The position numbers were made by a program, and so were the translations under genes. DNA of 45,689 bases from Fulvivirga sp. (lineage in GTDB: Bacteria; Bacteroidota; Bacteroidia; Cytophagales; Cyclobacteriaceae): NCBI GenBank assembly GCA_028280565.1, contig JANQLQ010000208.1:1-45689 (forward strand). The letters run 5' to 3'. This document shows positions 368 to 32,223 of this stretch, one piece after another (position 1 is the first letter of the stretch; each line of letters opens with the position of its first letter). Under the pieces are notes generated by a model, which worked only from the letters and a program-made list of their open reading frames with translations, had not been told where the DNA came from and searched no databases.

Positions 368-1873
368 TTATTCATGATCCCATTTCACAATCCACGGATC
401 ATTTGTTTTTTGCTGGAATGTCCTTATTCGGCTTTGTAGAGCCATCAAAAGCTCCTGGTGGCTTGCGCTATTTATTAAATTGATAGACTCAAGTGGATCC
501 TCCTGCAGGTTGTACAACTCAAATTCCGGCCTGGAAGTGTAAGAAACGATATCCCTGGCCCCGTATTTCGGGTTATCGGATTCCAGGGCCTCCTGCCATG
601 TAGCCGAAGCCCACAAATCGGATGCATGCGGATAGGGTAATGGGTGGGCCAGGTTCCATATTAACTTGTAATCCCCCTTTATGATAGACCTCATCGGGTA
701 ATACATGGTGATCTCGTGGAAAGTGTGGCTCGCAAAGCTCTCTGTCCTGGCTTCCTCTCCGGGGGACTCCAGCACATTTTTAAATGAAATGCCATGAAAA
801 TCATCTACTGGGGTTTGAAGGTGTTGCCCTCCGGCCGCGTAATCTTTAAATGAATTCTTCAATGAATCAGTCGCTGGTCCCAGGATCCCCGCCAAATCCA
901 AAATGGTGGGGGTAAGATCCGACCAGTTTACGAGCGCTTCGGTGACAGATCCCGCATTTTGCTGGTTTACGTTTTTAACGATCAACGGGAGATTGATACC
1001 GGGCTCATAAACATTGGTCTTGGCTCCCGGGAAGGCTATTCCATTATCAGAGATGTAAATTATGATCGTATTGTCCCATTTTCCTGCTTCTTTAAGATAG
1101 CGCATTAACTTCCCTACCCCCTGGTCCACACGATTTACAGATGTATAGTATTGTACTAATTCTGCTCTTGTCGCTGGTAGATCGGGAAGATACCCTGGCA
1201 CCAAAACGCTATCGGGACTTATCCCATACTCCTCTATCCCTTCATATCCCTCATCCCTATTACCAAACCGATCAGGCTTCAAGGGGTGCGCCTCTACCCT
1301 GCCCCCACCTCTATGAGGGTCATTGGTGCAGAAATACAGGAAAAAGGGATGGTTCGTCGTTTCTATGAACTTGATCGATTCTTCCACCATTTTTGCCGTA
1401 TTCCGACCACGGAATGGAAGGACTCGCTGGAACCTGAATACCTCTTCCGGTCCTACATGGTATTTACCGATCCGGGCAGTCCTGTAACCCGCGATTTCCT
1501 CCAAATACGCGGGTAATGATTTCAAAAATTCATGTGATCTGAAATGATGGTAGCTATGTACATGACCGTACATACCATTCAGGTGATTGTACAAACCTGT
1601 CAGGATCACGGAGCGACTGGCCGCACATGATGGAGCCGTAGCATAGGCCCTCGTAAACCGCAAACCTTCTGATGCCAGCACATCTAGGTTGGGGGTGCTT
1701 ATGGCCCGGTTGCCATAGCAGCCCAGGTCATTCATGCCGTGGTCATCAGCAACGATCAATATGATATTGGGCTTTTTTCCCAAGGAAAAATTAGCGCCTT
1801 GATCTTTTCGTTCCTGGCAACCGATCAATACAAATAAGAAGGTGATGAGTAAAAGTGAAGTTCTCGATGACAT
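368..1873 (-). CDS. Sulfatase (S1 family, heparan N-sulfatase-like), lipoprotein
   Basis: Predicted arylsulfatase-superfamily enzyme that hydrolyses a sulfate ester or sulfamate on a glycan, anchored as a lipoprotein (hydrophobic leader, lipobox L-I-G-C with Cys19). The N-terminal metal-binding Asp pair is D43-D44 (V-A-D-D-H-G). The formylglycine signature is C83-A-A-S-R87, an acceptable C-x-[P/A]-S-R core whose Cys83 would be converted to formylglycine. A second metal-site motif I-S-D-N-G is visible in the middle. Length (501 aa) is normal. The D-D-H-G / G-C-Y-G-N pattern resembles N-sulfoglucosamine sulfohydrolase-like sulfatases; substrate is not determined. It follows the next sulfatase by 11 bp, so the two are probably co-transcribed. 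It is the last gene of the long minus-strand series. Confidence 0.9.
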   Translation of the reverse strand: MSSRTSLLLITFLFVLIGCQERKDQGANFSLGKKPNIILIVADDHGMNDLGCYGNRAISTPNLDVLASEGLRFTRAYATAPSCAASRSVILTGLYNHLNGMYGHVHSYHHFRSHEFLKSLPAYLEEIAGYRTARIGKYHVGPEEVFRFQRVLPFRGRNTAKMVEESIKFIETTNHPFFLYFCTNDPHRGGGRVEAHPLKPDRFGNRDEGYEGIEEYGISPDSVLVPGYLPDLPATRAELVQYYTSVNRVDQGVGKLMRYLKEAGKWDNTIIIYISDNGIAFPGAKTNVYEPGINLPLIVKNVNQQNAGSVTEALVNWSDLTPTILDLAGILGPATDSLKNSFKDYAAGGQHLQTPVDDFHGISFKNVLESPGEEARTESFASHTFHEITMYYPMRSIIKGDYKLIWNLAHPLPYPHASDLWASATWQEALESDNPKYGARDIVSYTSRPEFELYNLQEDPLESINLINSASHQELLMALQSRIRTFQQKTNDPWIVKWDHE

Positions 1874-1884
1874 GATCCAATATA

Positions 1885-3357
1885 CTATTTTTTCATCTCA
1901 TCTTGGCCTAATTGCCCTGTACCTGTACTTTTTGATACCGCCGGCTCAAAGTCTCCAGGGATCCACCTTCTCATTTCTTCCAATACAGGCGCATACTGAT
2001 CATTAGATGCCAGGTTATTCCATTCCAGGGAATCCGTATCATGGTCATAAAGCTCTTCTGAACCGTCCTCATAAAGTATATACCTCCACTTTTCGGTTCG
2101 TACGCTGCTCCTGTTAGGCTGATCAAACGAGACCGAAGCATACGGCCACTCCAGCTGTGGATTACTGAGTAGGGGTGCAATGTTCCGTCCATCATTCCCA
2201 GGGTTGGCCGGAAGCCCTGCCAGGTTAACTAACGTGGGATACAGATCGAGTAAATTGACCATTTTATCACTGCTAGTCCTAGGTTGGGTCACACCTGGAA
2301 CAGAAATTATCAAAGGTACCCTGCAAGCCTCTTCCCACATGGTAAATTTCCTGTAGTGCAGTTTCTCCCCCAAATGCCAGCCATGGTCTCCCCATAAGAC
2401 CAATATGGTATTATCCTTGTTCGGGTTTTCAAGGATCGCCTCCAGTAAGATACCCAGGCAATCGTCAGCATAGGCCATGGAAGCTAAGTAGGCTTGCACC
2501 GCCTCCTTTTGAAGTCCATGCTTTTTGATCCGCTGGAAATCTTTGTCCTGCTTGAGTCCCCCAGAGTTTTGTTTTGCCAGCTTTCCCAGGTCATCCAGGT
2601 CATTTTCATTGATCTCGGGTACAATTACCTCATCGATCGGGAACCTGTCATAATACTCTTGCGGAACATACCATGGTAAGTGAGGCCGGAAAAGACCTGC
2701 CGCAATGAATTTTGGCTTTTCACTTTCTTTTAACAATTCATTGGCCGCCCATTTAGCCACGTGATAATCCTGGGTTTCTTCGATACTTAAATTATTGGAG
2801 GCCCAGTCAAGGCCATACTGAAAAACTCCCTGGTAAGGCATCCCGTTCGCCAACATTCCATCTTTTCTTCCCGGGTGTTGCCCCATGCTATTCCCAGTAG
2901 GATTTTGCCAATCATCCCATTCGTCGGGATGAGACATTGGACCTTTCATGTGGTGAAACAACTTTCCTTTACCGGAAGTATGATAACCATGTTTACTAAG
3001 GTACCGAGGCAATGTGGCCACCTTACCATAAATGGGTGATCGAGAAAGTGAATCCCGGTTTTTGTAAATACCACTTCTGTGTGGAGATACCCCCGTTAGC
3101 AGTGCTGCTCTTGACGGATTACAAACGGGAGCTGCGCAGTAGGCCCTTTCGAAAACCAGCCCCATACCGGCCAGGCGGTCCAGGTTTGGCGTTTTTGCTT
3201 GCGGATGGCCTCCTAGAAATCCCACCCAGTCATTCAGGTCGTCCACGGCTATCATGAGAATATCTGGCCTGGTCGGTTGCTCAGCCTGTTGCTGGTTGCT
3301 ACATCCCAATAGAATGAAGCATATAATTAAAAAAGTTATGGATCTTCCGGTTTGCAT
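1885..3357 (-). CDS. Sulfatase (S1 family, iduronate-2-sulfatase-like), lipoprotein
   Basis: Predicted exported sulfatase of 490 aa. It has a lipoprotein leader with lipobox L-L-G-C (Cys19), an N-terminal A-V-D-D-L-N-D-W metal motif (D39-D40) and the formylglycine signature C79-N-P-S-R83. Further on come the L-F-R-P-H-L-P segment and W-G-D-H-G-W-H-L-G-E, typical of iduronate-2-sulfatase-like S1 sulfatases. A C-terminal R-T-E-K-W-R-Y segment followed by E-L-Y-D-H is the usual sulfatase tail. It lies upstream of the sulfatase ending at 368 with an 11-bp gap and downstream of a GH43. Family resemblance points to 2-O-type sulfate removal, but sulfatase specificity cannot be read reliably from motifs. 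Confidence 0.9.
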   Translation of the reverse strand: MQTGRSITFLIICFILLGCSNQQQAEQPTRPDILMIAVDDLNDWVGFLGGHPQAKTPNLDRLAGMGLVFERAYCAAPVCNPSRAALLTGVSPHRSGIYKNRDSLSRSPIYGKVATLPRYLSKHGYHTSGKGKLFHHMKGPMSHPDEWDDWQNPTGNSMGQHPGRKDGMLANGMPYQGVFQYGLDWASNNLSIEETQDYHVAKWAANELLKESEKPKFIAAGLFRPHLPWYVPQEYYDRFPIDEVIVPEINENDLDDLGKLAKQNSGGLKQDKDFQRIKKHGLQKEAVQAYLASMAYADDCLGILLEAILENPNKDNTILVLWGDHGWHLGEKLHYRKFTMWEEACRVPLIISVPGVTQPRTSSDKMVNLLDLYPTLVNLAGLPANPGNDGRNIAPLLSNPQLEWPYASVSFDQPNRSSVRTEKWRYILYEDGSEELYDHDTDSLEWNNLASNDQYAPVLEEMRRWIPGDFEPAVSKSTGTGQLGQDEMKK

Positions 3358-3501: not shown

Positions 3502-4932
3502 TCAGTTTAAGACCAGCCAGTTCACATTCATTATTTTTGTTGTACCACGACGGCTTTTGAAAACCAAGAATAAGTCATGCACTCCTTCTATTTTTTCCAG
3601 CAATCCTGTCTCAACGGTTTTCCAGCTATTCCATCCGCCTGTGTTTTGTGAACGTATAGTAGCAATCTTTTTTCCATCGATACTATCAAGATAAACATCC
3701 AAAGTTCCGGCCGTAGTTACGCCTGAAATTCTTGCGGTAAGTTTACGGGCTGTTCCACCACCGAAATCAACCCTGTTAAAGCGGACATAAGCGTCCCGTT
3801 CTGTTTCACATATCATCCAACCGTCCGGTTCTCCCCCACCGACAAAGGCCGTTTTAGCTCCATTGATTTCGTTATACCGGTCTACTTGTAGGGTATCCCC
3901 CAACGTGGGTGTACCAATGCCACGCAAGGTAGGGATCACTTTCTTTATTGCCCCGGGTAGTATCCTGCGCCTCGGTTTGTCAAAATACATGTAATCGGCA
4001 CGTATGGAACGTAATTTATTATCACCACTGACCTCCCATTGGTGGTAGAATAATATCCAATTTCCCTGGTATTCCACCACGGAATGGTGATTCGTGCCAT
4101 CACCAATATTATCAATAATTTTTCCCCGGTAGCGGTAAGGGCCCATAGCCTTATCCGACGTGGCGTAACCAATGGTATACCCTTCATCTCTAAAAATATG
4201 TGCAAACGACAGGTAATAGATGCCATCCTTTTTGAAAGGGAATGCACCTTCCATATATCCGCCCGGAAGACCTTGAACGGAGACAGGTTCCTGCGCTAGT
4301 TCCTTCATGTTTTTCTCCAGGGGCGCCACATGGATCTCGTGCCCACTTCCAAAGAACATATAAAATGTGCCATCATCATCTTTTAGCAGGCCGGGGTCAA
4401 TCCCCTTGGTCCCTGGGATATAGTCTTGTTCTACTTTAAATGGCCCGGTGGGGCTGCTGCCTACAGCCACACCGACCCGGTGCACGGAATCTGCCGCTCT
4501 CACAGGGAAATAGAAATAATATTTGCCATCCTTTTCTATACAATCCGGCGCCCACATGCTGTAAGAACCTTTCAAAGCCCAGGGTACCTCATCGTTATTC
4601 AAAAACCGGCCATGATCTTTCCAGGTAACGCCGTTTTCCAATGAAAATATGTTGTAGCCTGGCATACAATGCTGATATCTCGTGTAATCGGAAGGAGGTA
4701 CCGTGTCACTGGAAGGATAGATGTACAACTTACCTTCAAAGACCCTGGCAGTAGGATCGGCAGTGTACATATGAGTGATCAACGGATTCTGAGCTTGTAA
4801 AAAGCAAGTATAAAGCACCAGTACCAGGCTGGGCAGAAACAGCTTTTTTTGATGGCGCACTGGAAAAGACAGGATTGTCAGCTTTGTACGGAATTCCATT
4901 GAGTCTTTTAAGAGGTGATTCAGTTGCTTCAT
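3502..4932 (-). CDS. GH43 glycosidase with C-terminal CBM6
   Basis: Predicted secreted five-bladed beta-propeller glycosidase, most likely an alpha-L-arabinofuranosidase or beta-xylosidase type exo-enzyme. The GH43 triad is recognisable: base D59 (T-A-D-P-T-A-R-V), pKa modulator D179 (G-I-D-P-G-L-L) and acid E228 (Y-M-E-G-A-F). Residues about 350-476 form a CBM6-like beta-sandwich (aromatic W-N-S-W and C-terminal N-V-N-W-L). The signal peptide lies at about 29-48, leaving an unusually long n-region from the first Met; an internal Met at residue 12 (start 4899) may be the true start. It stands between sulfatases, suggesting that desulfation and arabinosyl/xylosyl removal go together. Specificity within GH43 is inferred only. 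Confidence 0.88.
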   Translation of the reverse strand: MKQLNHLLKDSMEFRTKLTILSFPVRHQKKLFLPSLVLVLYTCFLQAQNPLITHMYTADPTARVFEGKLYIYPSSDTVPPSDYTRYQHCMPGYNIFSLENGVTWKDHGRFLNNDEVPWALKGSYSMWAPDCIEKDGKYYFYFPVRAADSVHRVGVAVGSSPTGPFKVEQDYIPGTKGIDPGLLKDDDGTFYMFFGSGHEIHVAPLEKNMKELAQEPVSVQGLPGGYMEGAFPFKKDGIYYLSFAHIFRDEGYTIGYATSDKAMGPYRYRGKIIDNIGDGTNHHSVVEYQGNWILFYHQWEVSGDNKLRSIRADYMYFDKPRRRILPGAIKKVIPTLRGIGTPTLGDTLQVDRYNEINGAKTAFVGGGEPDGWMICETERDAYVRFNRVDFGGGTARKLTARISGVTTAGTLDVYLDSIDGKKIATIRSQNTGGWNSWKTVETGLLEKIEGVHDLFLVFKSRRGTTKIMNVNWLVLN

Positions 4933-5083: not shown

Positions 5084-5098
5084 TTACTCAATTTCTTC

Positions 5099-5218
5099 CT
5101 AATCAATAAGCATGACAGGCATGAGGAACCACTTAAAACCGAGCATTTCATCCAACCCTGCTTCATTCTCGCCAGTCACATGTTGAGGAGATTGCACGGA
5201 CCTCCTAATTGATCTCAT
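5099..5218 (-). CDS. Possible 39-aa ORF overlapping the sulfatase stop
   Basis: ATG at 5216-5218 overlaps the TGA of the upstream sulfatase by 4 bp (ATGA), the same coupling used by real gene pairs in this window. The product starts M-R-S-I-R-R and ends G-F-K-W-F-L-M-P-V-M-L-I-D. I do not recognise it. It could be a small peptide, the 5' relic of a decayed gene (a regulator fragment follows in another frame at 4967-5083), or chance. No signal peptide is seen. Confidence 0.25.
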   Translation of the reverse strand: MRSIRRSVQSPQHVTGENEAGLDEMLGFKWFLMPVMLID

Positions 5219-6822
5219 TGAGGAAATTGACCCGGTGTACGAGACAACTCCCGGTCAAGTAACTGCTCCAATTCATTGGCTACCGAAACATAAGCCTTTT
5301 TGCCCATTAAATTTTCGAACTCGAACGGATCTTTCTCCAGGTCATAGAGCTCCCGATCTCCATTTCTGAACCTGATAAACCGATACTGATCTACTCTTAT
5401 GGCATGGTTGTCTTTGCCATGCGTATTGAGTACCGGGCCCCTCTTGGAAGTTTCCAGGGTGAGCATCTTTGACAGGTCATAACCATAAATGTGATCAGGA
5501 CGCGGTAAACCGGCTAAAGAGACTACCGTGGGGTAGAGATCTTGCAAGCTGACAGGAGTTTGAATGGTACCTGTGTTGGCATTTCTATAATCCCTGGCTA
5601 TCAAATTACTGTGGTTGGCTCCTTCCCATAAGGTAGTTTTCCCTGTCCTGTTTTTATCTCCTACATGATATCCATGATCACTCCAAAGCAACACAATGGT
5701 ATTATCCTTTCCCGGGCTTTTCTTAAGTGCATCTATCAGGAATCCAATGTTTTGATCCGAATAAGCTACGGTGGCCAGGTAGGCCTGGAGATAGGCTTTC
5801 CATGCGTTTAGATCTCCACCCTCGCCGTCTACCTTTATACCGTACTGTCTAAGCCGTGTAAAGCCGGTTTTTCGTGTGACTTCTTTGCCATAGCCCGAGA
5901 GGTCCTGCCGGTCCTCCTTTATCCAATCCAGTAACTCCTGGTCAATGGACATTTCCGAGACCGGGAACAAGTCGTGAAAAGACTGCGGCACCACCCAGGG
6001 AAGGTGCGGGGCAAATAACCCACAGGCAAGAAACCAGGGTTTATCTTTTGGGACTTCCACGTGCTTTTTCTGCTTTCTGAAATCCACCATTTCTGCCCGG
6101 CCGGATAGCACCAGGTCAGCAATAAACTTTGCATTCAGGAAGTCATTGGCTTTTTCCCTGGGAACTTCGGTAGTGCCAAACCGGGTATAGTTACGCACAT
6201 TCCCGGTCTTGTTTTCCCAGTACCTGGAGATCTTTTCCTCCCGGTCAACGGAAGCCCCCGCTCCTACGCCAGTGCCTGTCCACGTTTCAACCCAGTCATC
6301 CCAGGAAAACAGTTGGTCGGGCCAGTCACTGAAGACCCCCCTGTCCAGGTAAGACTGGCCTTTGTGAAAGACTTTGCCAATGCCACAGGTATAGTACCCG
6401 TTTTGCTTTAGGTATTGCGGGAGGGTGACTGCATCCGTCAACGTCTCGTAACCTCGAAAATGCTGATCATGATGATAATACCCGGAAACATGAGGCGGCA
6501 CGCCGGTAAGCAGTGCTGTCCTGGAGGGACCGCAAAGCGGGGCGGCACAATAGGCCTTTTCAAATACTATCGCTTCTTTTGCAAAGGCATTCATACGAGG
6601 AGTCAGTCGATTGATCACTGATTCCCTCAGCTTGTCATCGGGGTATATTTTCTCCAAAAAATTTCCCGGGAAGTTTCCCAGTACTGTATTGTAGATGTTC
6701 AGGTCATCTACCGCAATGAATAGAAAATTTGGCCGGCTCGGCTGGGGCTTTTCCCTCCCTGCCCACCAAAAACCTCCTGAAACAAGCACAGTGAAAAGAA
6801 GAAATGCACGTATGTATTTCAT
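5215..6822 (-). CDS. Sulfatase (S1 family, iduronate-2-sulfatase-like), long form
   Basis: Predicted exported sulfatase, 535 aa. The N-terminus is a signal peptide or membrane anchor (hydrophobic 5-20, no lipobox Cys). The metal motif is A-V-D-D-L-N (D39-D40). About 25 extra residues (50-75, N-F-L-E-K-I-Y) separate this from the formylglycine signature C97-G-P-S-R101, so the spacing is longer than in its neighbours. L-F-A-P-H-L-P-W and W-S-D-H-G-Y-H-V-G-D confirm the alkaline-phosphatase-superfamily core. The 172-bp gap upstream holds two hairpins. A possible tiny ORF starts inside its stop codon. It is probably a different sulfatase subgroup from the gene at 1885, so a distinct sulfate position is plausible but unproven. 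Confidence 0.9.
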   Translation of the reverse strand: MKYIRAFLLFTVLVSGGFWWAGREKPQPSRPNFLFIAVDDLNIYNTVLGNFPGNFLEKIYPDDKLRESVINRLTPRMNAFAKEAIVFEKAYCAAPLCGPSRTALLTGVPPHVSGYYHHDQHFRGYETLTDAVTLPQYLKQNGYYTCGIGKVFHKGQSYLDRGVFSDWPDQLFSWDDWVETWTGTGVGAGASVDREEKISRYWENKTGNVRNYTRFGTTEVPREKANDFLNAKFIADLVLSGRAEMVDFRKQKKHVEVPKDKPWFLACGLFAPHLPWVVPQSFHDLFPVSEMSIDQELLDWIKEDRQDLSGYGKEVTRKTGFTRLRQYGIKVDGEGGDLNAWKAYLQAYLATVAYSDQNIGFLIDALKKSPGKDNTIVLLWSDHGYHVGDKNRTGKTTLWEGANHSNLIARDYRNANTGTIQTPVSLQDLYPTVVSLAGLPRPDHIYGYDLSKMLTLETSKRGPVLNTHGKDNHAIRVDQYRFIRFRNGDRELYDLEKDPFEFENLMGKKAYVSVANELEQLLDRELSRTPGQFPQ

Positions 6823-9656: not shown

Positions 9657-11102
9657 CTATTCCGTTTCGGTTACCCCGGTTACGATTCCATTGATCATTT
9701 TAGTCCACCGCCCCGGGATTGCCTCGAGCATTTGGTCCGGAACATATTTTTTCAATTGACTTTTCACTTTCTTGTATTTTTTTAAGCCTGCCAGGTTATT
9801 CAATTCCCATGGATCACGGGTATGATCATAGAGCTCTTCTCCTCCATCCGGGTAGGTGATGTAGCGATACTTCTCACTGCGTATGGATACCCAATTTTTT
9901 CCAAAATAGGTAATGGAAGGGTGCTTCCAATTCGTGTTTGGATCCTCTAACAACGGCCTTATGCTGTGCCCATCAATGGGGTTGCGTGGGTTGATCCCGT
10001 TAGCGCCAAAATCAACAAATGTGGGATACAGGTCCAATAAGTTCACCGGGGCGGCACAAATCTTCCCGGCCTGGGGAGAACCGGGCATATAGATTACCAT
10101 GGGCGTAATGGCGGATTGCTCCCAAAGGGAGTTCTTATCAAACCGGTCTTTCTCCCCCATGTGAAAGCCATTGTCTGAAGTGACAATGATGATGGTATTT
10201 TTGGCAAATTGGCTGCTTTCCAATGCCTCCAATACCCTGCCGATGTTGTAATCCGCAAAGCTGTAACTCGCGAAATAGCCCTTTAGGTATTCTTTCCATT
10301 TTTGTTCGCTGCTGACTATTTCATTGAACTCACCCTGCTGGCCCTTCGACTCGATGTAGGCTTTGGGTATCGGTGGCATATCGTCGATATCATTTTTGAG
10401 ATACCCCGGTGGGATCTCTATGTCATTCACATCATACATATCCAAAAATCTTTGGGGACAGGTATAGGGGGAATGTGGCCTCCAAAGCCCGTACATAAGA
10501 AAAAATGGCTTCTCCTGGTCCTGCTCCAGTAAATCAATAATGGCATCCGCATTTTGAACGTCGGGAAAGTCTTCATCCGGAAACGCTTGTATTCCCCTGA
10601 AGCGACTATCGCTTCCAAACGTGCGATGCTCCTCATCCGGGAAGGGACCAAAGCCCGCTTTTCCTGTTCCCTTTGGAAAGTTCTTGGCCACACGATCCTT
10701 TGAGATATCCGAATGAAATAGTTTACCATACCCATACGTAGCATAGCCGGCGCGTTGAAACCACTCAAGCATGGTTTCCTGCTCTTTCATGATACCCGTC
10801 TCCCAGGCTTTACTGCCGTTGTAATATTTCCCTGTTTTATGGGGGGACAATCCACTGAGGAAAGCGGTACGTGAAGGACTGCATGCCGGTGCAGGGCAGT
10901 AAGCCTGGCGGAAGGTAATCGCCTTTTCCCTAAAAGCATCAAGGTTTGGCGTTTTGACTTGTTTATCACTCCCCAGGAATCCATATTGGTTCATATCATC
11001 CGCCATGATGAGGACAATGTTCGGACGATCTTGCGCAAGCAAAGGTGAGGCAGGACCGAAAAGTAAAATGATGGAAATGAATAGTGGATGTAGGTTATTC
11101 AT
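9657..11102 (-). CDS. Sulfatase (S1 family, iduronate-2-sulfatase-like)
   Basis: 481 aa predicted periplasmic sulfatase with a cleavable signal peptide (about 1-24, ending L-L-A-Q-D). Metal motif M-A-D-D-M-N (D35-D36), formylglycine signature C74-S-P-S-R78, then L-W-R-P-H-S-P and T-S-D-N-G-F-H-M-G-E. The C-terminal region has I-R-S-E-K-Y-R-Y and E-L-Y-D-H. Unlike its lipoprotein neighbours it has no lipobox, so it should be soluble. It starts 18 bp after the GH43-like gene ending at 11121 and is probably part of that operon. The 205-bp gap on its 3' side carries a hairpin-rich repeat and likely marks an operon end or mRNA processing point. Confidence 0.9.
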   Translation of the reverse strand: MNNLHPLFISIILLFGPASPLLAQDRPNIVLIMADDMNQYGFLGSDKQVKTPNLDAFREKAITFRQAYCPAPACSPSRTAFLSGLSPHKTGKYYNGSKAWETGIMKEQETMLEWFQRAGYATYGYGKLFHSDISKDRVAKNFPKGTGKAGFGPFPDEEHRTFGSDSRFRGIQAFPDEDFPDVQNADAIIDLLEQDQEKPFFLMYGLWRPHSPYTCPQRFLDMYDVNDIEIPPGYLKNDIDDMPPIPKAYIESKGQQGEFNEIVSSEQKWKEYLKGYFASYSFADYNIGRVLEALESSQFAKNTIIIVTSDNGFHMGEKDRFDKNSLWEQSAITPMVIYMPGSPQAGKICAAPVNLLDLYPTFVDFGANGINPRNPIDGHSIRPLLEDPNTNWKHPSITYFGKNWVSIRSEKYRYITYPDGGEELYDHTRDPWELNNLAGLKKYKKVKSQLKKYVPDQMLEAIPGRWTKMINGIVTGVTETE

Positions 11103-15366: not shown

Positions 15367-15367
15367 C

Positions 15368-18678: not shown

Positions 18679-18697
18679 ACTTTTTAGAATTAAAACC

Positions 18698-24740: not shown

Positions 24741-25730
24741 TTACCTCGCTAACCGGATCCGATCGCCTAAATCCTCGATCTCAAATAGTCGGGCCCGTTC
24801 AAGCTTTCCTCCATTGGGCTGATGAAGCGTGAGCATCAATTTTCCTTGCAGGGTCTTGAATATCATCCCATGCCCTCCATTTTCTGTAAACAGTGGCTCT
24901 TTAATATGCTGCCAGGGGCCATAAATGCTTCCATTTTCGCTAACCGCCTGGATCAGTGCATACCCGGCTGGGCCGAACGTGGACCAGATCATGACCAACT
25001 TCCCCGTCTTTGTTTTAAATACAAAGTTACCGTCCGTAACGTACCCGTGATGTTTGGATCCCCTATCCCTGAGGCTGACTGCCCATGGAATGTCTGTTGT
25101 ACCGAATAGCTGGATAGGCGTGGAAATCGCTTCGGAAAGATCGCCTGAAAGTTTCACCACGTCGATAGTGCCCTCTTTAATTTGCGCCCATTCATGGCAA
25201 AATACCATGTAGGGTTGTTCATCCTCCACCCACAACGAACCATCCAGCGACATCCATTCGGGTGGGGTTTGTGTGCCTTTCGAAATGGTTTTAAAGGGTC
25301 CCAAAGGGCTTTTTGATCTCAAGACCTGGGTCCCTCTTTTCCATTGGGGGGCCGTACTTCTTCCGGGGTAATCCAGCGTGTCATAGCTGGTGAAGGTTAC
25401 AAATAAATAGTAGTCACCCCTATATTCATGCACCTCTGGCGCCCACACCGATTTTCTGCCCCAGAAATCTTCCGGCGCCTCAAAAACAGGCGTTGGACCC
25501 GACCATTTCTTCAAATCCTTACTTTGATAGACCTCCACACCCACTTCTCCAGGTGTGCTGTTCAGCCTGTTTTGCATTTGGGCATAGAGATAGTAAGTCT
25601 TGCTTTCTTTGTCCACCAGGATAAACGGGTCCCTGATCCTGATATCACTCAAATCGACCAATCCCTGTGCCATAGCAGGTAATCGCCCTACTAACATGAT
25701 CAAAAAAAGAAGGTAGAAAGCTCTTTTCAT
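24741..25730 (-). CDS. GH43-family glycosidase, secreted
   Basis: 329 aa, signal peptide 1-21 (ends A-M-A-Q). Compact single-domain propeller: base D34 (I-R-I-R-D-P-F-I-L), W-A-P-E-V-H, S-L-D-G-S-L-W as pKa-modulator region, and V-T-D-G-N-F-V-F near the position where the general acid is expected. The usual [SG]-E-[AGS]-P acid motif is not obvious, so the acid residue is uncertain. Its ATG overlaps the symporter stop by one base (TAATG), so it is co-translated with the symporter and the ara genes. This direct link to L-arabinose uptake and catabolism is the best contextual argument in the window that its GH43s release L-arabinose. Confidence 0.84.
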   Translation of the reverse strand: MKRAFYLLFLIMLVGRLPAMAQGLVDLSDIRIRDPFILVDKESKTYYLYAQMQNRLNSTPGEVGVEVYQSKDLKKWSGPTPVFEAPEDFWGRKSVWAPEVHEYRGDYYLFVTFTSYDTLDYPGRSTAPQWKRGTQVLRSKSPLGPFKTISKGTQTPPEWMSLDGSLWVEDEQPYMVFCHEWAQIKEGTIDVVKLSGDLSEAISTPIQLFGTTDIPWAVSLRDRGSKHHGYVTDGNFVFKTKTGKLVMIWSTFGPAGYALIQAVSENGSIYGPWQHIKEPLFTENGGHGMIFKTLQGKLMLTLHQPNGGKLERARLFEIEDLGDRIRLAR

Positions 25731-27562
25731 TACATCCAGAATATTGAATATAAAGTCACTATAATCACGAGTATCCCGATGGCGCCTATGTTAAAGGCAC
25801 GATTTGTTATAAAAATTTCGGACTTCACTACGATAGCTTTAGCATCTTGAACTTCCATGGTGGCATTGGTATAAATGACAATGCCAAGCATAAGGAATAA
25901 TGTACCCAACACGAAAATTGCTTCAAAACCAAAATCTGCCAGTGGAGCGGAAAGGAAAACACCACAAAGCAATAAAAGTATACCTATTCCAAGCAATAAA
26001 TAGCCGGACCTAAGCATTTTCTTCTTTTTAGCCCCGTCTATCACCGGGCTTGCCACTTTTCCACCTTTATCGAGAAAGCTGATGGTTAGCGCTACAATAC
26101 ATAAAATCATAAACACATATCCCATCCTGAGAATAAACGGGGTACCGGGTAGGGTCAAATAGAAAAACACCCCGGTGGGTAAAGTCAGGATAGCGGTGTA
26201 AAGGGCTGCTTTATTGGTGATCTGCTTCCAGAACAAGCCCAGCCCAAAGACCACAACTACACCCGGGTATACAAAACCTGTTACCATTTGGATGTATTGA
26301 AAGACCTGGTCTAACGTCTTTAATGCCGGGGCGACAACAATGGCAATCAGCATAGCCACTACCGCAATGGTTCTCCCAGAACGGATCAATTCTTTATCAT
26401 TCGCATTCGGACGAATATAGGCTTTGTAGATGTCCATGGTAAATACGGTGGAGGTACTGTTGATCATGGAAGCTAAAGATGACACTACTGCCGCTACTAA
26501 CGCCGCAAAAGCCAACCCCCTTACTCCGACCGGCACGAAATTTTGAAGAAGCCATGGATATGCCTCGTCCGACTTTGTGATCTCTCCAACGGTATCGGCG
26601 GCGAATCCAGGGTTATTGGAAATGACGTACGCGGTAATCCCCGGGATCACTACCAATAATGGGATGAGTATTTTCAAGTACCCAGCGAAAATCAATCCTT
26701 TCTTTGCCTCTTGCAGTGTTTTACCCGCCAACCCTTTTTGGATGATATACTGGTTAAATCCCCAATATCCCAAATTGATGAGCCACATAGACCCCAGTAT
26801 AACTGCGAGTCCCGGAAGGTCATTGTAGGCATCTTTCATACTACCTTCTCCGCCAGGAATGGACATGGCTCCTTTTGAGACGATCATGGAAAAATGATCT
26901 CTTGCCCCTTCATAGATATGACCCAACCCTTTTAAAACGTCTCCCCCTCCTACAACACTTAACGAGATAAACGTAGTGACCAGTCCGCCCCCAATTAGAA
27001 AGGTAACCTGGATAACATCCGTCCAGGCGACGGAAGATAACCCACCATAGATGGAATAAATGCCGGAAAATAGGAGCAATCCTATGATTCCATAAAGGAG
27101 CGGAACGCCCATGATCTTTTCCATAGCCAAGGCCCCAAGGTAACTCACCGAAGTCAGGTTGACAAAAATGTATACGAGGATCCAAAAGCCCGCAAACAGT
27201 GAACCCACCAAACGGCTAAACCGGTCATTCACAAATTGAGGCATGGTATAGATCTTTTTCTCCAGGAAAATTGGCAGGAAGTACTTGGCCACCAAAATCA
27301 ATGCTACCGCTGCTATCCACTCATAGGCGGCAATTCCCAAACCGATGGCATATCCTGAACCAGACATGGCAATAAAATGCTCGGCAGAAATATTGGCTGC
27401 AATCAGTGAAGCACCAATCGCCCACCACGTGAGGGAATTACTGGCCAAGAAATAATCGTTTGCTGTTTTGTCCTTTTTCCTGTTAGACACATAAAGCCCT
27501 ATAAAGAGAATGATCAAACAATAAATGGCAAAAACTATATAGTCAAGAGTAGAAAATCCCAT
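25730..27562 (-). CDS. Sodium:solute symporter (SSS/SLC5 family), probable sugar transporter
   Basis: 610 aa integral inner-membrane protein with about 14 hydrophobic helices. The SGLT-like first segment (L-D-Y-I-V-F-A-I-Y), the S-L-T-W-W-A-I-G-A-S-L-I-A-A-N-I-S-A-E-H signature in the first helices and G-G-L-S-S-V-A-W-T-D-V-I-Q place it with vSGLT-type sugar/Na+ symporters. In Bacteroidota arabinose loci an SSS symporter next to araA commonly imports the pentose, and its position between araA and a GH43 supports L-arabinose (or a small arabinoside) as substrate. It lies 149 bp after araA, the only sizeable gap in the operon, and that gap contains a lipoprotein-leader relic. Confidence 0.92.
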   Translation of the reverse strand: MGFSTLDYIVFAIYCLIILFIGLYVSNRKKDKTANDYFLASNSLTWWAIGASLIAANISAEHFIAMSGSGYAIGLGIAAYEWIAAVALILVAKYFLPIFLEKKIYTMPQFVNDRFSRLVGSLFAGFWILVYIFVNLTSVSYLGALAMEKIMGVPLLYGIIGLLLFSGIYSIYGGLSSVAWTDVIQVTFLIGGGLVTTFISLSVVGGGDVLKGLGHIYEGARDHFSMIVSKGAMSIPGGEGSMKDAYNDLPGLAVILGSMWLINLGYWGFNQYIIQKGLAGKTLQEAKKGLIFAGYLKILIPLLVVIPGITAYVISNNPGFAADTVGEITKSDEAYPWLLQNFVPVGVRGLAFAALVAAVVSSLASMINSTSTVFTMDIYKAYIRPNANDKELIRSGRTIAVVAMLIAIVVAPALKTLDQVFQYIQMVTGFVYPGVVVVFGLGLFWKQITNKAALYTAILTLPTGVFFYLTLPGTPFILRMGYVFMILCIVALTISFLDKGGKVASPVIDGAKKKKMLRSGYLLLGIGILLLLCGVFLSAPLADFGFEAIFVLGTLFLMLGIVIYTNATMEVQDAKAIVVKSEIFITNRAFNIGAIGILVIIVTLYSIFWM

Positions 27563-27643: not shown

Positions 27644-27712
27644 TCATATATCTCCTGGTCGGGGACTACACGATAACAATGCCATAACGGTCAACAGTGA
27701 TAAACTCTTCAT
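27644..27712 (-). pseudogene. Bare lipoprotein signal peptide after araA (gene relic)
   Basis: 22 codons. The ATG (27710-27712) overlaps the araA stop by one base (TAATG). The product starts M-K-S-L-S-L-L, has a hydrophobic core and a lipobox L-L-S-C at Cys15, then ends seven residues later at TGA (27644-27646). That is a full lipoprotein leader with no body, so it looks like the surviving 5' end of a deleted gene. Bacteroidota arabinose operons often carry an aldose 1-epimerase or another exported protein at this place (context inference). A genuine tiny lipopeptide is the alternative. Confidence 0.5.
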
Positions 27713-29211
27713 TACATTTTATTTTGAAACAAGTGGTAGTACACTTCATTCCATTGTATGGCTTGCTTAAAGTCACGGACTTTTGTCTCGTTGTCAATGA
27801 CCAGCAATTCTATTTCCGCTATTTCAGCCAGGTCTTCGAAGAAAGAGGTATCCAGGGCCTTGCTGAATACGGTGTGATGTGCTCCCCCTGCTAAAATCCA
27901 TGTGTGTGCAGCAATAGTAAGGTTTGGTTTTGCCTCCCAAAGCACCCGCGCCACTGGTAATTTCGGAAGCTCATTTTCGGGAGATACTGCCTCTACTTCA
28001 TTGACCAGTAACCTGAATCTATTGCCCATGTCTATTAAAGAGGCATTGATCGCCGGGCCTCCATCCACATCAAATACCAGTCGTGCGGGATCTTCCTTCC
28101 CCCCGATCCCAAGCGGATGTACTTCACACCTTGGCTTGTTGTTGGCAATAGTCGGGCATATCTCCAGCATATGTGAGCCTAATACCCTCGCTCCGTTCGG
28201 GTTAAAATCATAGGTGTAATCTTCCATAAAAGAAGTACCTCCTTCCAACCCCACATCCATGACCTTGACTGCTCTCAGCAGGGCCGCCGTTTTCCAATCT
28301 CCTTCTGCTCCGAAACCATATCCCTCTGCCATCAATCTTTGAACAGCAATTCCCGGGAGCTGCCGCAAACCATAGAGATTTTCGAAAGTATCTGTGAAAG
28401 CAGTAAATCCTCCATCTTGCAGGAAAGCCCGAAGCCCCAACTCAATCCGTGCGGCTTCTTTGATCGATTCATCTTTTGGAGTTACTTGCTCGAAAGTATA
28501 TTCCTGCTCGTAGACCTGGATCAATTGGTTGATCTCGGCATCTGTTACCGCACCTACAAACTTTGCCACATCTCCCAGCCCATACCCGTTGACCGAAAAT
28601 CCAAATCTCATTTGTGCTTCTACCTTATCTCCTTCGGTAACCGCCACCTCTCGCATATTATCTCCTATCCGGGCTACTTTCGTGCGCTGCAGCTCATGCC
28701 AACCAACGGCTACCCGGGTCCATTTTCCGAGCTTTTCCTGCAGGCTTTTCTCCTGCCAGTGCCCTACAATAACTTTTCGTTGTTTTCTCAACCTACTGGC
28801 CATAAATCCAAATTCCCGGCCTCCATGGGCAGATTGATTTTCATTCATAAAATCCATGTCAATTTCTGACCACGGGATTTCCGTATTGTATTGGGTATGT
28901 AAGTGCGCAAGCGGTTTCTTAAAATTCTTCAAGCCTGCGATCCACATTTTAGCCGGGGAAAAAGTATGCATCCATACGACTACACCCACACATCGGTCAT
29001 CTTGGTTGGCTTGCTGGAGTACCTGGTAGATCTCACCAGGCGTAGTAACTAATGCTTTGTAGTTAAAATCTACAGGTATGTGGGGACTGCTATTCAGCCC
29101 AGAAGCAATTTCTTTGGCATGTTTGGCTACACTTTTCAGCGTTTCTTCACCATAGAGGTGCTGACTTCCAGTGATCATCCATACCTGGTATTGATTGAGA
29201 TTTATGTTCAT
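27712..29211 (-). CDS. araA: L-arabinose isomerase
   Basis: 499 aa, the standard length. Converts L-arabinose to L-ribulose in the cytosol (EC 5.3.1.4) with Mn2+. All metal-site and catalytic motifs of the E. coli enzyme are present: G-A-E-G-D-W-K (E306 equivalent), F-M-E-D-Y-T-Y (E333), G-S-H-M-L-E (H350) and A-H-H-T-V-F-S (H450). The N-terminus has the typical [12 protein letters not shown]. Its start overlaps the upstream HAD gene by 4 bp. It is the third enzyme gene of the operon although it performs the first reaction. Assignment is firm. Confidence 0.98.
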
Positions 29212-29867
29212 CGGTGGTTGAATTTTAGTAGCTGGCTGATTGAGAATTGATCATAATTTTTTATAAATCGGGTGATTCCCGGTATATCGTTGAAATCGCT
29301 TTCCTCATGCGTGGTAGTAACAATCACCAAAGGGCATCCTGCTGAAGAAGCCGAGATAGCGCCGGTTGGAGAGTCTTCAAACACGAGGCAATCTTTTGGG
29401 TCCAGGCTTAACTGGTCCGCGGTTTTTAAATATATCTCGGGATCCGGCTTGCCTTTTTCCACATCCCCGGCACTTAGAATAGCACTGAAAAAGTGCCTGA
29501 TGCCCAGGTTATCGACCACGAAATCTACGTTTTCCGGGGGTGCGGCGGATGCAATAGCGAGTGGAAGGCCTGGTGGACGAGATTCTTTTAAAAACCTGTC
29601 TAGCCCCGGTATGAGCTCAAGTCGATCAAGAAAGATCCGCCGGTATGCTTCTTCTTTCTCAGCAGATATCTTTCTTCTTTCCCCTAGGGAAAAACGGTCT
29701 CCAAACAATCTTTCGAGTATTTCTTCATTGATACCATGTACTTTTTCTTTGACTTCACTTAGCGATAGCGAAAGCCCCAACTCTTTCAGCTTCGATTGCC
29801 AGGCCCTGTGATGGACCATCATATTGTCCACCATGGTCCCATCAAGATCAAAGATCAGGCCCCTCAT
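29208..29867 (-). CDS. HAD-superfamily phosphatase / beta-phosphoglucomutase-like
   Basis: 219 aa. Motif [10 protein letters not shown] (nucleophile D7 and D9 region), a helical cap domain, motif II Ser/Ala-rich I-A-S-A-A-P, the lysine in K-G-K-P-D-P-E and motif IV E-D-S-P-T-G. This is subfamily I, like beta-phosphoglucomutase and sugar phosphatases. It is translationally coupled (4-bp overlaps) between araD and araA, so it should act on a sugar phosphate of the L-arabinose route. It may hydrolyse excess L-ribulose-5-phosphate or a side product (metabolite repair). The classical araBAD set does not include it. Mutase activity cannot be excluded. Confidence 0.9.
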
Positions 29868-30565
29868 GATTGTCCGTAGTAAGCATCCTTACCGTGTTTT
29901 CTTTGGTAATGTTTTTGAATAAGGCTTTCTTTCAGCCGGGGAGATTGTGGATTAACCTGCTCGGTCAGGAGTGCCATCTCGGCAATTGTTTCCAATACTT
30001 TACTATTGTATACCGCCTTTTCGGCAGTTTTTCCCCACGTAAAGGGTCCGTGATTCCCGATCAGCACCATTTCAACTTCGCGATGATCAATTTTCTTCGC
30101 CTTAAAGCAGTCCATAATTTGTTGTCCCGTCATGTGTTCATAGTCTCCTTTGATCAGCTCATCTTTCATGGGAGGAGCGCAAGGAATATCTTCCGTGAGA
30201 TGATCAGCATGAGTAGTTCCATAAACAGGAATATCACGTTGTGCCTGTGCCCAGGCTACCGAATAGGTGGCATGTGTATGAGCGATGCCACCTATTGATT
30301 CCCAGTGTTTATAAAGAAATGCATGTGTTTTAGTATCAGACGAGGGCCTCATCGAGCCTTCGATGATTTCATTTTCAAAATTGACGATTACAATATCTGC
30401 TGGCTTCAGTATTTCGTAAGGCACTCCACTGGGTTTGATCGCAAAAACTGAATGTGCACGGTCCACTGCACTTACATTCCCGAAGGTGTATACCACCAAC
30501 CCCAGGCCGGGAAGCTGCATGTTGGCCTCATAGCACTCCTCTTTAAGGTTTTTATACTGGCTCAT
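29864..30565 (-). CDS. araD: L-ribulose-5-phosphate 4-epimerase
   Basis: 233 aa class II aldolase/adducin-fold enzyme that turns L-ribulose-5-phosphate into D-xylulose-5-phosphate (EC 5.1.3.4), feeding the pentose phosphate pathway. Zn2+ ligands are seen in I-A-H-T-H-A-T-Y and I-G-N-H-G-P-F-T-W-G. The G-N-V-S substrate loop, K-P-S-G-V and T-H-A-D-H-L follow the E. coli AraD pattern. Length is standard. It overlaps araB upstream and the HAD gene downstream by 4 bp each. Confidence 0.97.
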   Translation of the reverse strand: MSQYKNLKEECYEANMQLPGLGLVVYTFGNVSAVDRAHSVFAIKPSGVPYEILKPADIVIVNFENEIIEGSMRPSSDTKTHAFLYKHWESIGGIAHTHATYSVAWAQAQRDIPVYGTTHADHLTEDIPCAPPMKDELIKGDYEHMTGQQIMDCFKAKKIDHREVEMVLIGNHGPFTWGKTAEKAVYNSKVLETIAEMALLTEQVNPQSPRLKESLIQKHYQRKHGKDAYYGQS

Positions 30566-32223
30566 ACATTTCCATTCATGGTAGACTCAACATAATTACC
30601 CAATGACAGGTAGCTCTTGTATCGTTGTATGTAGTGCAATACCTTACCCCGCTCCGGTTCATAGATTTTTTCAAAACCATTACCCATTTTTTTCATAGCG
30701 ATCTCGATGTTTTCATGAATTCCTGCTGCCACCGATGCATACATGGCGGCTCCTAATGCGGGTGCCTGTTCGGATACTGCGATCTTGATCGGCATATTCA
30801 ATACATTGGCAAGGGTTTGCATAATGAAGGCCGATTTTTTTGCTACTCCACCAATACCAACTACGGATTTGATCTCAACTCCTTCGTCCTCGAACCGATC
30901 TACAATGGCCTTTGACCCATAGCATATGGCCTCTACCAAAGCTTTGAATATTTGAGGTGCCCCGGATCCGAGGCTTAGATTCAGCATGGCCGCTTCCAGG
31001 TTTTGATTGGCATCCGGGGTACGTCTGCCGTTGATCCAGTCCAAGGCCAGTACATCATGATCATGATCGGGCAATTGTTCCGCAGCCTCTGAAAGTCCCT
31101 GGATGATTGATTCCTTTAGCTTATGTTTTTGATCCTGGGGCAATACATCATCTTGCAATTGATCTATGGGCCAGGATACCAACTCCCTGAACCAGGCCAA
31201 AACATCTCCAAAAGCAGACTGACCCGCTTCCAGCCCAATCATACCCGGGAGAACCGAACCATCGACCTGCCCACAGATACCTTTTACGGTGCTATCACCT
31301 ACCACACTTCCGGGAGAGACAATAATATCGCAGGTAGAAGTACCCATGACCCGGACCAAGGTAAACTCTTCTACCTCGGCACCTACTGCCCCGGCATGGG
31401 CATCGAATGTGCCTACAGAAACCTTGACGTCAGTCGATAGTCCTAGTCGCTCCGCCCATTCGGCATTCAAGGTCCCAGCAGGTACATCGGAGGTAAATGT
31501 ATTTTCGTACAAATGCTTCTTCACTTTTGGGAGATAGGGATCGAGCTGCTCCAAAAAAGGATCTCCCGGCAGTCCGCCCCACGACTCGTGCCACATCGCT
31601 TTATGCCCAGCAGCGCACCGGCTTCTTTTGAATTCAGCAAGATTGTTGTTTCCAACAAGCATATATGTCATCAAATCGCAATGCTCCATCCACGAATGAG
31701 CATTTTCTTTCACTTCCTTATCATTCCTGGCGATATGAAGAATTTTAGCCCAAAACCATTCCGAGGAATAAATTCCTCCTTCATACTTTGTAAAGTCTTC
31801 TCCTCCCCAGCTCCTGGCAAGGCGATTGATCTCTTCGGCCTCTTCTATTGCCGTGTGATCTTTCCAAAGCACCAGCATAGCATTTGGGTTCTCTTCAAAC
31901 CCAGGTTTTAGGCAGAGTGGGGTACCCGTTTCATCTACGGCTATTGGCGATGAGCCTGTCGTATCTATACAGATCCCCTTGACCTGGCCTATATCTACAC
32001 CTTTGCTGCGGATCACTTCGATAATGGTGTTTTCCAGGCCTTCTATATGATCTAAAGTGTGCTGTCGAAACTGGTTTACACCTGGGTTACAATATTTACC
32101 CGCATTCCATCTTTGATAGTGATGTACGTGGGTGGCCAGGGTGTTGCCATTCGAACAATCGACAAGAAGTGCCCTGACCGAATCGGTACCATAGTCTATA
32201 CCAATTGTATATTCCTTGCTCAT
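30562..32223 (-). CDS. araB: Ribulokinase (L-ribulokinase), FGGY family
   Basis: 553 aa. Phosphorylates L-ribulose with ATP (EC 2.7.1.16). The N-terminal phosphate-binding G-I-D-Y-G-T-D-S-V-R, then W-K-D-H-T-A, the F-D-A-H-A-G-A-V-G segment, and the ATP site G-T-S-T-C / G-I-G-G-V-A-K-K-S fit AraB of the FGGY kinases; length matches. It is the first gene of the operon araB-araD-HAD-araA-symporter-GH43. A 9-bp inverted repeat directly abuts its start codon. No AraR/Nudix-type or AraC-type regulator gene is next to it. Confidence 0.96.
   Translation of the reverse strand: MSKEYTIGIDYGTDSVRALLVDCSNGNTLATHVHHYQRWNAGKYCNPGVNQFRQHTLDHIEGLENTIIEVIRSKGVDIGQVKGICIDTTGSSPIAVDETGTPLCLKPGFEENPNAMLVLWKDHTAIEEAEEINRLARSWGGEDFTKYEGGIYSSEWFWAKILHIARNDKEVKENAHSWMEHCDLMTYMLVGNNNLAEFKRSRCAAGHKAMWHESWGGLPGDPFLEQLDPYLPKVKKHLYENTFTSDVPAGTLNAEWAERLGLSTDVKVSVGTFDAHAGAVGAEVEEFTLVRVMGTSTCDIIVSPGSVVGDSTVKGICGQVDGSVLPGMIGLEAGQSAFGDVLAWFRELVSWPIDQLQDDVLPQDQKHKLKESIIQGLSEAAEQLPDHDHDVLALDWINGRRTPDANQNLEAAMLNLSLGSGAPQIFKALVEAICYGSKAIVDRFEDEGVEIKSVVGIGGVAKKSAFIMQTLANVLNMPIKIAVSEQAPALGAAMYASVAAGIHENIEIAMKKMGNGFEKIYEPERGKVLHYIQRYKSYLSLGNYVESTMNGNV

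What the first reader, a model, noticed from the sequence alone, without database searches (positions are those of the whole stretch)
368..32223. Candidate utilisation locus for a sulfated, L-arabinose-rich glycan without SusC/SusD
Seen: six sulfatases, five GH43-like genes, GH27, GH2 and a secreted beta-helix enzyme lie next to araB-araD-HAD-araA, and the ara operon itself continues into a symporter and a GH43 (1-bp TAATG overlap). Known: algal (for example Codium-type) cell walls contain sulfated arabinans and arabinogalactans; GH43 and some GH27 enzymes release L-arabinose. Inference: extracellular desulfation and debranching feed L-arabinose into this operon. It is unusual that no SusC/SusD pair is present in 45 kb, so the uptake route would rest on the symporter and on an unseen outer-membrane channel.
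Basis: partly seen in the sequence, partly recalled or inferred. Interest (0 to 1): 0.78.

Follow-up and report, generated by a model that had tools for sequence, protein, structure and literature searches.

The report
Seaweed sulfated-arabinose sugar-eating gene cluster
A probably marine bacterium carries a gene cluster that most likely strips sulfate from and dismantles an arabinose-rich green-seaweed polysaccharide; it is a relative of a gut-bacterium cluster that responds to Codium seaweed glycan, and the uptake genes thought to be missing probably lie just past the contig edge.

Summary
The genes are there: six S1 sulfatases with intact active sites, five GH43, GH27, GH2, a T9SS-tagged beta-helix enzyme, and araB-araD-HAD-araA-symporter-GH43. 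The substrate idea is supported and sharpened. GH27 is nearest to a solved beta-L-arabinopyranosidase, GH2 to a beta-D-galactofuranosidase and GH43a to beta-xylosidases. This fits published sulfated 4-linked beta-L-arabinopyranans of Cladophora (Galf and Xyl branches) and Codium. Much of the gene set recurs in Phocaeicola plebeius, almost certainly at PUL13, the locus induced by Codium glycan (PMC8406133), in Agaribacillus and Flavobacterium, and, with araABD, in a Verrucomicrobiota MAG.

'No SusC/SusD' is probably an assembly effect. The window is a whole contig, and its first 85 bases equal the last 85 of contig C100, which carries three SusC/D pairs, a hybrid two-component regulator and another GH49-like protein. 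The overlap lies in a dispersed repeat, so the join is probable, not proven. A sister genome lost the ara cassette by deletion, yet the enzyme genes show low dN/dS. Extracellular desulfation is not supported: only the beta-helix carries a secretion tail. All specificities are inferred.

The parts
1..266 (.). Dispersed repeat at the left contig end; bases 1-85 equal the last 85 bases of contig C100
368..1873 (-). S1a sulfatase, lipoprotein-like start; best PDB match N-sulphoglucosamine sulphohydrolase 4mhx
1885..3357 (-). S1b sulfatase, lipoprotein-like start
3502..4932 (-). GH43a with CBM6; PDB matches include beta-xylosidases
5215..6822 (-). S1c sulfatase
6995..9451 (-). GH49-like beta-helix protein with fn3-like, RicinB and T9SS sorting domains; proposed secreted backbone-cutting enzyme
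9657..11102 (-). S1d sulfatase
11121..12176 (-). GH43b (likely start 12176, ORF open to 12386)
12173..13540 (-). GH27, beta-L-arabinopyranosidase type (motif DYCW)
13537..15393 (-). GH2, nearest named solved relative beta-D-galactofuranosidase 2
15368..16954 (-). S1e sulfatase, lipoprotein-like start
16978..18723 (-). S1f sulfatase, lipoprotein-like start
18933..20465 (+). GH43c; PDB matches beta-xylosidase/alpha-L-arabinofuranosidase
20462..21607 (+). GH43d, conserved in related loci at 50-72%
21604..22767 (-). AAA_14/DUF4143 ATPase gene inside the locus, role unknown
22877..24694 (-). DUF5060/collagen-binding-like protein, last gene of the ara run
24741..25730 (-). GH43e, best PDB match 'endo-arabinase' 5c0p; 1-bp overlap with the symporter
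25730..27562 (-). SSF sodium/solute symporter (sugar specificity not tested)
27712..29211 (-). AraA, L-arabinose isomerase
29208..29867 (-). HAD phosphatase-like protein (below the beta-phosphoglucomutase family cut-offs)
29864..30565 (-). AraD, L-ribulose-5-phosphate 4-epimerase (subfamily model)
30562..32223 (-). AraB, ribulokinase
32224..32331 (.). Upstream region of araB, the last stretch shared with the sister genome

Best explanation
This is most of a polysaccharide utilisation locus for a sulfated, beta-L-arabinopyranose-rich green-algal glycan of the Cladophorales/Bryopsidales type. The locus probably continues leftward into contig C100. Proposed working: (1) the T9SS-tagged GH49-like beta-helix protein, perhaps with a second GH49-like protein on C100, cuts the arabinopyranan outside the cell; (2) SusC/SusD pairs on C100 import the fragments; (3) six S1 sulfatases in the periplasm or on membranes remove the sulfates; (4) GH2 removes beta-D-galactofuranose, GH43a and other GH43s remove xylose or arabinofuranose, and GH27 removes beta-L-arabinopyranose; (5) the SSF symporter takes L-arabinose across the inner membrane, and AraA, AraB and AraD convert it to D-xylulose 5-phosphate (pathway recalled). 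Shown here: gene content, operon packing, active-site residues, family relationships, recurrence of the gene set, low dN/dS, the 85-bp overlap. Inferred: all substrate specificities, cell locations, the C100 join and the order of steps.
For: GH27: best PDB match is 4nx0, a GH27 beta-L-arabinopyranosidase (E 4e-123); where alpha-galactosidase-type proteins read D-D-x-W the window reads D-Y-C-W and 4nx0 reads D-I-Q-W. 0 of 83 rows of this GH27 set have Asp there (54 I, 20 Y, 5 F, 1 L, 3 gaps), against 5 of 7 alpha-galactosidase-type rows from the genus; the other 2 of 7 were wrong frames. ara genes lie in the fetched DNA of 7 of 80 GH27 loci, including araB-araD-GH27-araA in two Mucilaginibacter. 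GH2: nearest named solved relative is 9j6n, beta-D-galactofuranosidase 2 (E 2e-157). GH43a: beta-xylosidases; GH43c: beta-xylosidase/arabinofuranosidase; GH43e: 5c0p, 'endo-arabinase'. Published glycans fit: 4-linked beta-L-Arap backbone with 3-O and 2-O sulfate and beta-D-Galf or beta-D-Xylp branches in Cladophora (PMC5694217, passages); a Galf-bearing 4-linked arabinan in Codium isthmocladum (PMC9695659, passages); review PMC7550628 (passages). Homologous loci. C100: overlap; gene families. dN/dS.
Against: No enzyme here has been assayed. The C100 overlap is only 85 bp and lies in a repeat with dozens of copies; the search that found it scored 40 of 121 candidate stretches, so other equal ends cannot be excluded. 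The C100 SusC/SusD segment has no close match in the sister genome. SusC identities to related loci are 26-35% over near full length. SusC also lies near 4 of 8 control GH2 loci, so it is not special to this kind of locus. The window GH2 scores against 9j6n much as it does against a second, 43-47% identical GH2 clade, so Galf specificity is a guess. The symporter passes only superfamily models. Arabinogalactan protein or coral mucin would fit part of the kit. ara genes lie within 20 kb in only 1 of the 11 other GH2-marked loci, and the sister genome lacks the linked ara operon.
Confidence: 0.66

Rival explanations
1. The target is a sulfated arabinogalactan protein (beta-1,3/1,6-galactan with sulfated arabinose), as PMC8406133 describes for the Codium preparation that induces P. 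plebeius PUL13, rather than a pyranosic arabinan.
For: The only experimentally induced homologous locus was tested on a preparation described as AGP (PMC8406133). GH2 and GH43 families also act on AGP. GH2, GH43d and GH27 are shared.
Against: The P. plebeius locus, like this one, carries a GH27 of the non-Asp type. The galactan-backbone enzyme (GH43_24) of that study is in another locus, PUL5. Of the four window GH43s compared with the PDB (a, c, d, e) none has an exo-beta-1,3-galactanase as best match; one appears only as a weak hit for GH43a (5flw, E 4e-9). GH43b and GH43f were not compared. Codium also makes sulfated beta-L-arabinopyranan (PMC7550628), so the preparation may contain both.
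Confidence: 0.2
2. The target is arabinose-rich sulfated mucin of coral mucus, or a polymer of the cyanobacterial mat in which the sister species lives; the neighbouring GH20, GH109, LacZ and GH29 genes would work on the same glycan.
For: The sister genome matches 'Flammeovirgaceae bacterium BBD 1991-12', from a black band disease cyanobacterial mixed culture (PMC4918915, passages). Acropora cervicornis mucus is about 49% arabinose (PMC11575353, passages), and arabinose marks complex-clade corals (PMC11189453, passages). GH109, GH20, LacZ and GH29 genes follow at 33947-45689.
Against: In the sister genome homology stops about 100 bp upstream of araB, so that cluster is not a conserved part. 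Related loci occur in Phocaeicola, Bacteroides, Flavobacterium and Verrucomicrobiota records, not only in coral bacteria. A galactofuranosidase-like GH2 has no evident use in mucin. The passages I saw do not say whether coral arabinose is D or L.
Confidence: 0.1
3. The ara operon is only a chance neighbour: a second copy of a general L-arabinose operon next to an unrelated sulfated-glycan locus.
For: A second ara operon exists at C144 (63-75% protein identity by gene). The sister genome deleted the linked copy and has one elsewhere. Only 1 of 11 other GH2-marked loci has ara genes within 20 kb.
Against: GH43e and DUF5060 share the run with ara (1-bp overlap) and remain intact in the sister genome beside symporter and araB remnants, so the linkage predates the split. 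A similar combination, araABD + SSF + GH27 + sulfatases, occurs in a Puniceicoccaceae MAG with 0 SusD matches, and sulfatase-GH27-araB-araA in a Pseudarcicella MAG.
Confidence: 0.15
4. The locus works without any SusC/SusD, taking up products by another outer-membrane channel.
For: None found among the window proteins scanned. A Verrucomicrobiota genome with a similar gene set has 0 SusD matches, so the pathway may run without SusD there.
Against: Whole contig; C100 overlap; 74 SusD matches in the genome; SusC matches within 20 kb of the marker GH2 in Agaribacillus, F. flevense, Flavobacterium sp. SUN052, B. ilei, P. plebeius and G240.
Confidence: 0.1

Closest known systems
Phocaeicola (Bacteroides) plebeius PUL13, induced by Codium fragile sulfated arabinogalactan (PMC8406133)
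   Same: GH2 (60-61% identity), GH43d-type (67%), GH27 (42%), sulfatases and GH49-like beta-helix proteins in one cluster. The fetched locus L097 has Ser at position 76 of the sulfatase that would be BACPLE00986, as the paper's S76C variant implies; I did not see locus tags.
   Different: The window has six sulfatases against two in L097 (those overlap L097 only; more lie further right), its own araB-araD-HAD-araA-SSF genes, a DUF5060 protein and a T9SS-tagged beta-helix. Its SusC/D are not on the contig. [quoted passage not shown]
GH27 beta-L-arabinopyranosidase Abp (PDB 4nx0; source organism Geobacillus stearothermophilus is recalled)
   Same: Best PDB match, residues 26-454 of 455; aspartates 214, 215, 300 and 302 conserved in nearly all aligned rows; no Asp at the second motif position.
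   Different: Tyr instead of Ile at that position. Y/F-type loci have a sulfatase in the fetched DNA in 14 of 22 cases, I-type in 2 of 54, but the Y/F switch needs only 2 changes on the tree and gives 2 independent pairs, so this is not independent evidence.
GH49 isopullulanase/dextranase
   Same: phmmer matches to isopullulanase 3wwg (E 3e-8) and dextranase 6nzs (E 2e-7). Asp 286, 305 and 306 are invariant in four aligned relatives; the same spacing (+19, +20) is in the C100 protein.
   Different: No Pfam GH49 hit for the window protein and no Pfam hit at all for the C100 protein. Carries RicinB and T9SS domains. Specificity unknown.
L-arabinose operons (araB, araD, araA with an SSF symporter)
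   Same: AraA and AraB exceed NCBIfam equivalog cut-offs; order araB-araD-araA-SSF as at C144 and G010:C266.
   Different: Contains a HAD phosphatase-like gene between araD and araA, and continues into GH43e and DUF5060.

Membership tests
S1 sulfatases | Sulfatase profile and C/S-x-P/A-S/T-R active site | tested here: met
   PF00884 in six of six; motif in six of six.
GH27 beta-L-arabinopyranosidase subgroup | Closest to a characterised beta-L-arabinopyranosidase, catalytic Asp kept, no Asp at the second motif position | tested here: met
GH27 beta-L-arabinopyranosidase subgroup | Hydrolysis of beta-L-arabinopyranosides | not testable with these tools
   Needs an enzyme assay.
GH49 | Match to the family profile | tested here: not met
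   Pfam gave only the secretion tail and RicinB over cut-off, plus fn3 below it; hence called GH49-like.
GH49 | Three catalytic Asp with matching spacing, beta-helix fold | tested here: inconclusive
   Asp 286/305/306 invariant in four rows; the GH49 spacing itself is recalled. AlphaFold model poor, mean pLDDT 43.
Bacteroidota SusC/SusD polysaccharide utilisation locus | Adjacent SusC/SusD pair | tested here: inconclusive
   None in the window; three pairs on C100, whose last 85 bp equal the window's first 85.
Bacteroidota SusC/SusD polysaccharide utilisation locus | Clustered co-oriented CAZymes and a sensor/regulator | tested here: inconclusive
   CAZyme runs met; no regulator recognised in the window; hybrid two-component regulators on C100 (Pfam) and on C98 (46% similar to one in the Agaribacillus locus).
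PUL13-type sulfated arabinogalactan locus | Shared GH2, GH43d, GH27 and sulfatase genes | tested here: met
PUL13-type sulfated arabinogalactan locus | Induction by Codium sulfated glycan | not testable with these tools
   Needs culture and RNA.
L-arabinose catabolic operon | AraA, AraB and AraD | tested here: met
   NF002795 (AraA) and NF003154 (AraB) equivalogs and NF006047 (AraD subfamily) above cut-off; AraD is below the TIGR00760 equivalog cut-off.

The most novel reading that the evidence does not exclude
The GH49-like beta-helix proteins of these loci are a new kind of enzyme: endo-hydrolases of sulfated beta-L-arabinopyranan. C1-C4 of beta-L-arabinopyranose have the configuration of alpha-D-galactopyranose (PMC7550628), so a 4-linked beta-L-arabinopyranan resembles polygalacturonan without its carboxyl, the substrate of the fold-related GH28 enzymes (recalled). 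If so, the true substrate of P. plebeius PUL13 would be the pyranosic arabinan in the Codium preparation rather than arabinogalactan protein, and the locus here would be a marine-side counterpart of a pathway for which PMC8406133 could find none.
Probability: 0.3. Interest if true: 0.72.

Novelty: new variant of a known kind. Interest (0 to 1): 0.55.

Why it matters
[quoted passage not shown] This window, the black band disease genome and Agaribacillus (marine by recall; the window's own habitat is inferred from its sister genome) offer counterparts, and the kit predicts which sugar is attacked. Sulfated pyranosic arabinans are important wall polymers of Cladophorales and some Bryopsidales (PMC7550628). 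Five literature searches listed no described enzymatic route for them apart from the PUL13 paper, judging by the titles and abstract openings shown; not all matching papers were listed.

Tried and rejected
Tried with little result: AlphaFold models of the DUF5060 protein (mean pLDDT 53) and the beta-helix (43) were too poor, so no fold search was run. PDB sequence search for DUF5060 gave nothing meaningful. Rfam: no match at gathering thresholds; tRNAs: none. Finding the SusC by homology to Agaribacillus gave no clear orthologue: C100 is first of 117 matches in G000, but at 33% identity and only narrowly. The C100 SusC/D segment has no close match in G010. G010:C40 was fetched and not analysed. 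Folding the dispersed repeat gave no special structure (z 0.54).

Considered and rejected: ulvan (no lyase or GH88/GH105 family hit among the 30 window ORFs scanned); a SusC/D-free uptake system as the leading idea; a strong reading of the Y/F-type GH27 link to sulfatases (Fisher p 4e-8), because the tree needs only 2 changes for the Y/F switch and offers 2 independent pairs. In that tree two of the seven alpha-galactosidase rows were dropped because the wrong frame had been taken, and one row (L131) whose locus has a sulfatase was coded as having none; it bears neither I nor Y/F, so the counts I quote do not use it. No background control was run for the 7 of 80 GH27 loci with ara genes.

Selection: I chose 13 of the 80 GH27 loci by their surroundings for the GH2 search; 10 of those 13 genomes have the high-identity GH2. 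Their joint occurrence of genes is therefore biased; only G240 was found by GH2 alone (where three candidates were scored per genome). In one search, 1 of 11 other high-identity loci (G024, a 19-kb contig) has no sulfatase, and only 5 of 11 have GH27 within 20 kb; of 8 low-identity control loci 2 have a sulfatase and 4 a SusC match. The pairwise dN/dS does not separate the time before and after the deletion in G010, and the araB remnant is only 70 codons.

Full report
Observation. The window is the complete contig G000:C251, 45,689 bp, of a 9.05-Mb genome in 337 contigs. Two tight runs carry much of the interval: S1f-S1e-GH2-GH27-GH43b-S1d (gaps 23, -26, -4, -7, 18 bp), and araB-araD-HAD-araA (three 4-bp overlaps), SSF (149-bp gap), GH43e (1-bp overlap), DUF5060 (46-bp gap). 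GH43c and GH43d are a pair on the other strand. The window holds 6 of 71 sulfatase matches and 6 of 19 GH43 matches of the genome.

Where the locus ends. The closest relative, G010, matches a named record, 'Flammeovirgaceae bacterium BBD 1991-12', from a black band disease culture (PMC4918915, passages only). Its contig C124 carries S1c, beta-helix, S1d, GH43b, GH27, GH2, S1e, S1f and part of GH43c at 95-98% protein identity, and another sulfatase in place of GH43a-S1b-S1a. Its contig C138 carries the rest (97% DNA identity over 5,466 bp), then jumps from window 25,837 to 32,008. There the last 35 codons of the symporter abut codons 3-74 of araB in a different frame: the cassette was deleted, leaving remnants. 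Thirteen intact gene pairs (AAA_14 included) have dN/dS 0.057-0.148; the araB remnant has 0.42 over 70 codons. So the other genes look constrained although the linked ara genes are gone, with the caution that pairwise values also cover time before the deletion. G010 has another ara operon at C266, and G000 has one at C144. Homology in G010 stops at window 32,331, so the GH109-SDR-GH20-LacZ-GH43f-GH29 stretch to the right is not a conserved part.

SusC/SusD. The genome has 74 SusD matches. Window bases 1-85 are identical to the last 85 bases of C100. That was the only full-identity match besides the window itself, which scored 40 of 121 candidate stretches. Among nine whole contigs (six of G000, three of G010) compared end to end, it was the only overlap of 25-250 bases. 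C100 carries a hybrid two-component regulator, two SusC/SusD pairs, a 347-aa GH49-like protein, then a third SusC/SusD pair and a lipoprotein-like gene without Pfam hit, the last three pointing at the window. The third SusD would end about 1.5 kb left of base 1. The 347-aa protein is 29% identical to the window beta-helix over 128 residues (E 1e-9), has the same spacing of three Asp, and is 54% identical to a protein inside the Agaribacillus locus. The overlap lies in a dispersed repeat (window 1-266; one search lists 66 matches in G000, window included, nearly all to this repeat), which explains the break but weakens the join. G010 has no close match to the C100 SusC/D segment.

Substrate. 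GH27 is nearest to solved beta-L-arabinopyranosidase 4nx0. Where alpha-galactosidase-type proteins have a second Asp (its role in binding galactose C6-OH is recalled), 0 of 83 rows of this set have Asp. In 7 of 80 loci GH27 lies in fetched DNA with ara genes, twice inside araB-araD-GH27-araA. GH2 is nearest to 7sf2 (no specific function named) and 9j6n, beta-D-galactofuranosidase 2. GH43a matches beta-xylosidases. Published Cladophora polysaccharide is 4-linked beta-L-arabinopyranose with 3-O and 2-O sulfate and beta-D-xylopyranose or beta-D-galactofuranose branches (PMC5694217, passages). [quoted passage not shown] The match of kit to polymer is my inference.

Relatives. PMC8406133 (parts 1-3 of 6 read, and passages) shows susC of P. 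plebeius PUL13 induced by Codium glycan, with sulfatases BACPLE00986 (studied as S76C) and BACPLE00990. My fetched P. plebeius locus has Ser76 at the active site of the corresponding sulfatase, and beside it GH2, GH27, a GH43d fusion and a second sulfatase. I therefore take it to be PUL13; I did not see locus tags. Using GH2 as marker at 56% identity or more, of 11 other loci 10 have a sulfatase within 20 kb, 7 a GH49-like match, 6 a GH43d-type gene, 5 GH27, 6 a SusC match and 1 ara genes. Of 8 loci of the 43-45% clade, 2 have a sulfatase, 4 a SusC match, and none GH43d-type, GH27, GH49-like or ara genes. Ten of the 11 were reached through GH27 loci that I had picked by their surroundings. In a class-wide draw, 1 of 394 other genomes had the high-identity GH2 (G240). 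Its 60-kb stretch also has DUF5060, GH43e, GH43d, two GH27 and two SusC/D pairs. A Puniceicoccaceae MAG with 0 SusD matches has GH2, two GH27, 11 sulfatase matches, SSF and araABD in about 55 kb.

Working. Of the proteins scanned in the locus only the beta-helix showed a T9SS tail. Sulfatases a, b, e and f and GH43d have lipobox-like starts, and c and d ordinary export-like starts (crude pattern reading). Desulfation in P. plebeius is placed after uptake (PMC8406133). So surface cutting, import, periplasmic desulfation and trimming, then symport and araABD, is the best reading; each step is inferred.

Verdict. A real, well-formed locus of a known general kind, with a new combination, a probable answer to the missing SusC/SusD, and a testable link to an open question about PUL13's marine relatives.

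Noticed in passing
window 1-266 and 36729-37126: Dispersed repeat; one search lists 66 matches in G000 (window included, nearly all to this repeat, 40 of 121 candidates scored), often in tandem, and few in G010; it sits at the broken left contig end.
   Followed up: partly
window 21604-22855: AAA_14/DUF4143 ATPase gene with palindromic repeats just upstream, conserved at 99% identity in G010.
   Followed up: no
window 33947-45689: Second glycan cluster: GH109, SDR, GH20, LacZ-type GH2, metallophosphatase, marginal GH43 and a GH29 cut by the contig end.
   Followed up: no
window 32861-33871: Gene without Pfam or NCBIfam hit whose sequence looks like a ParB-nuclease-type protein (reading by eye).
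   Followed up: no
L036 (G000:C98) 2297-12977: Regulator-like gene (46% identical to the hybrid regulator in the Agaribacillus locus), a second GH27, a sulfatase and a 750-aa GH43: perhaps another part of the same pathway.
   Followed up: partly
L055 12710-14367 (G008): araB matches in two different frames in this single-contig genome.
   Followed up: no
window 5215-25730 against L035/L049: dS between the sister genomes varies from 0.04 (GH43d, AAA_14) to 0.19 (S1e) within one locus, hinting at recombination.
   Followed up: no
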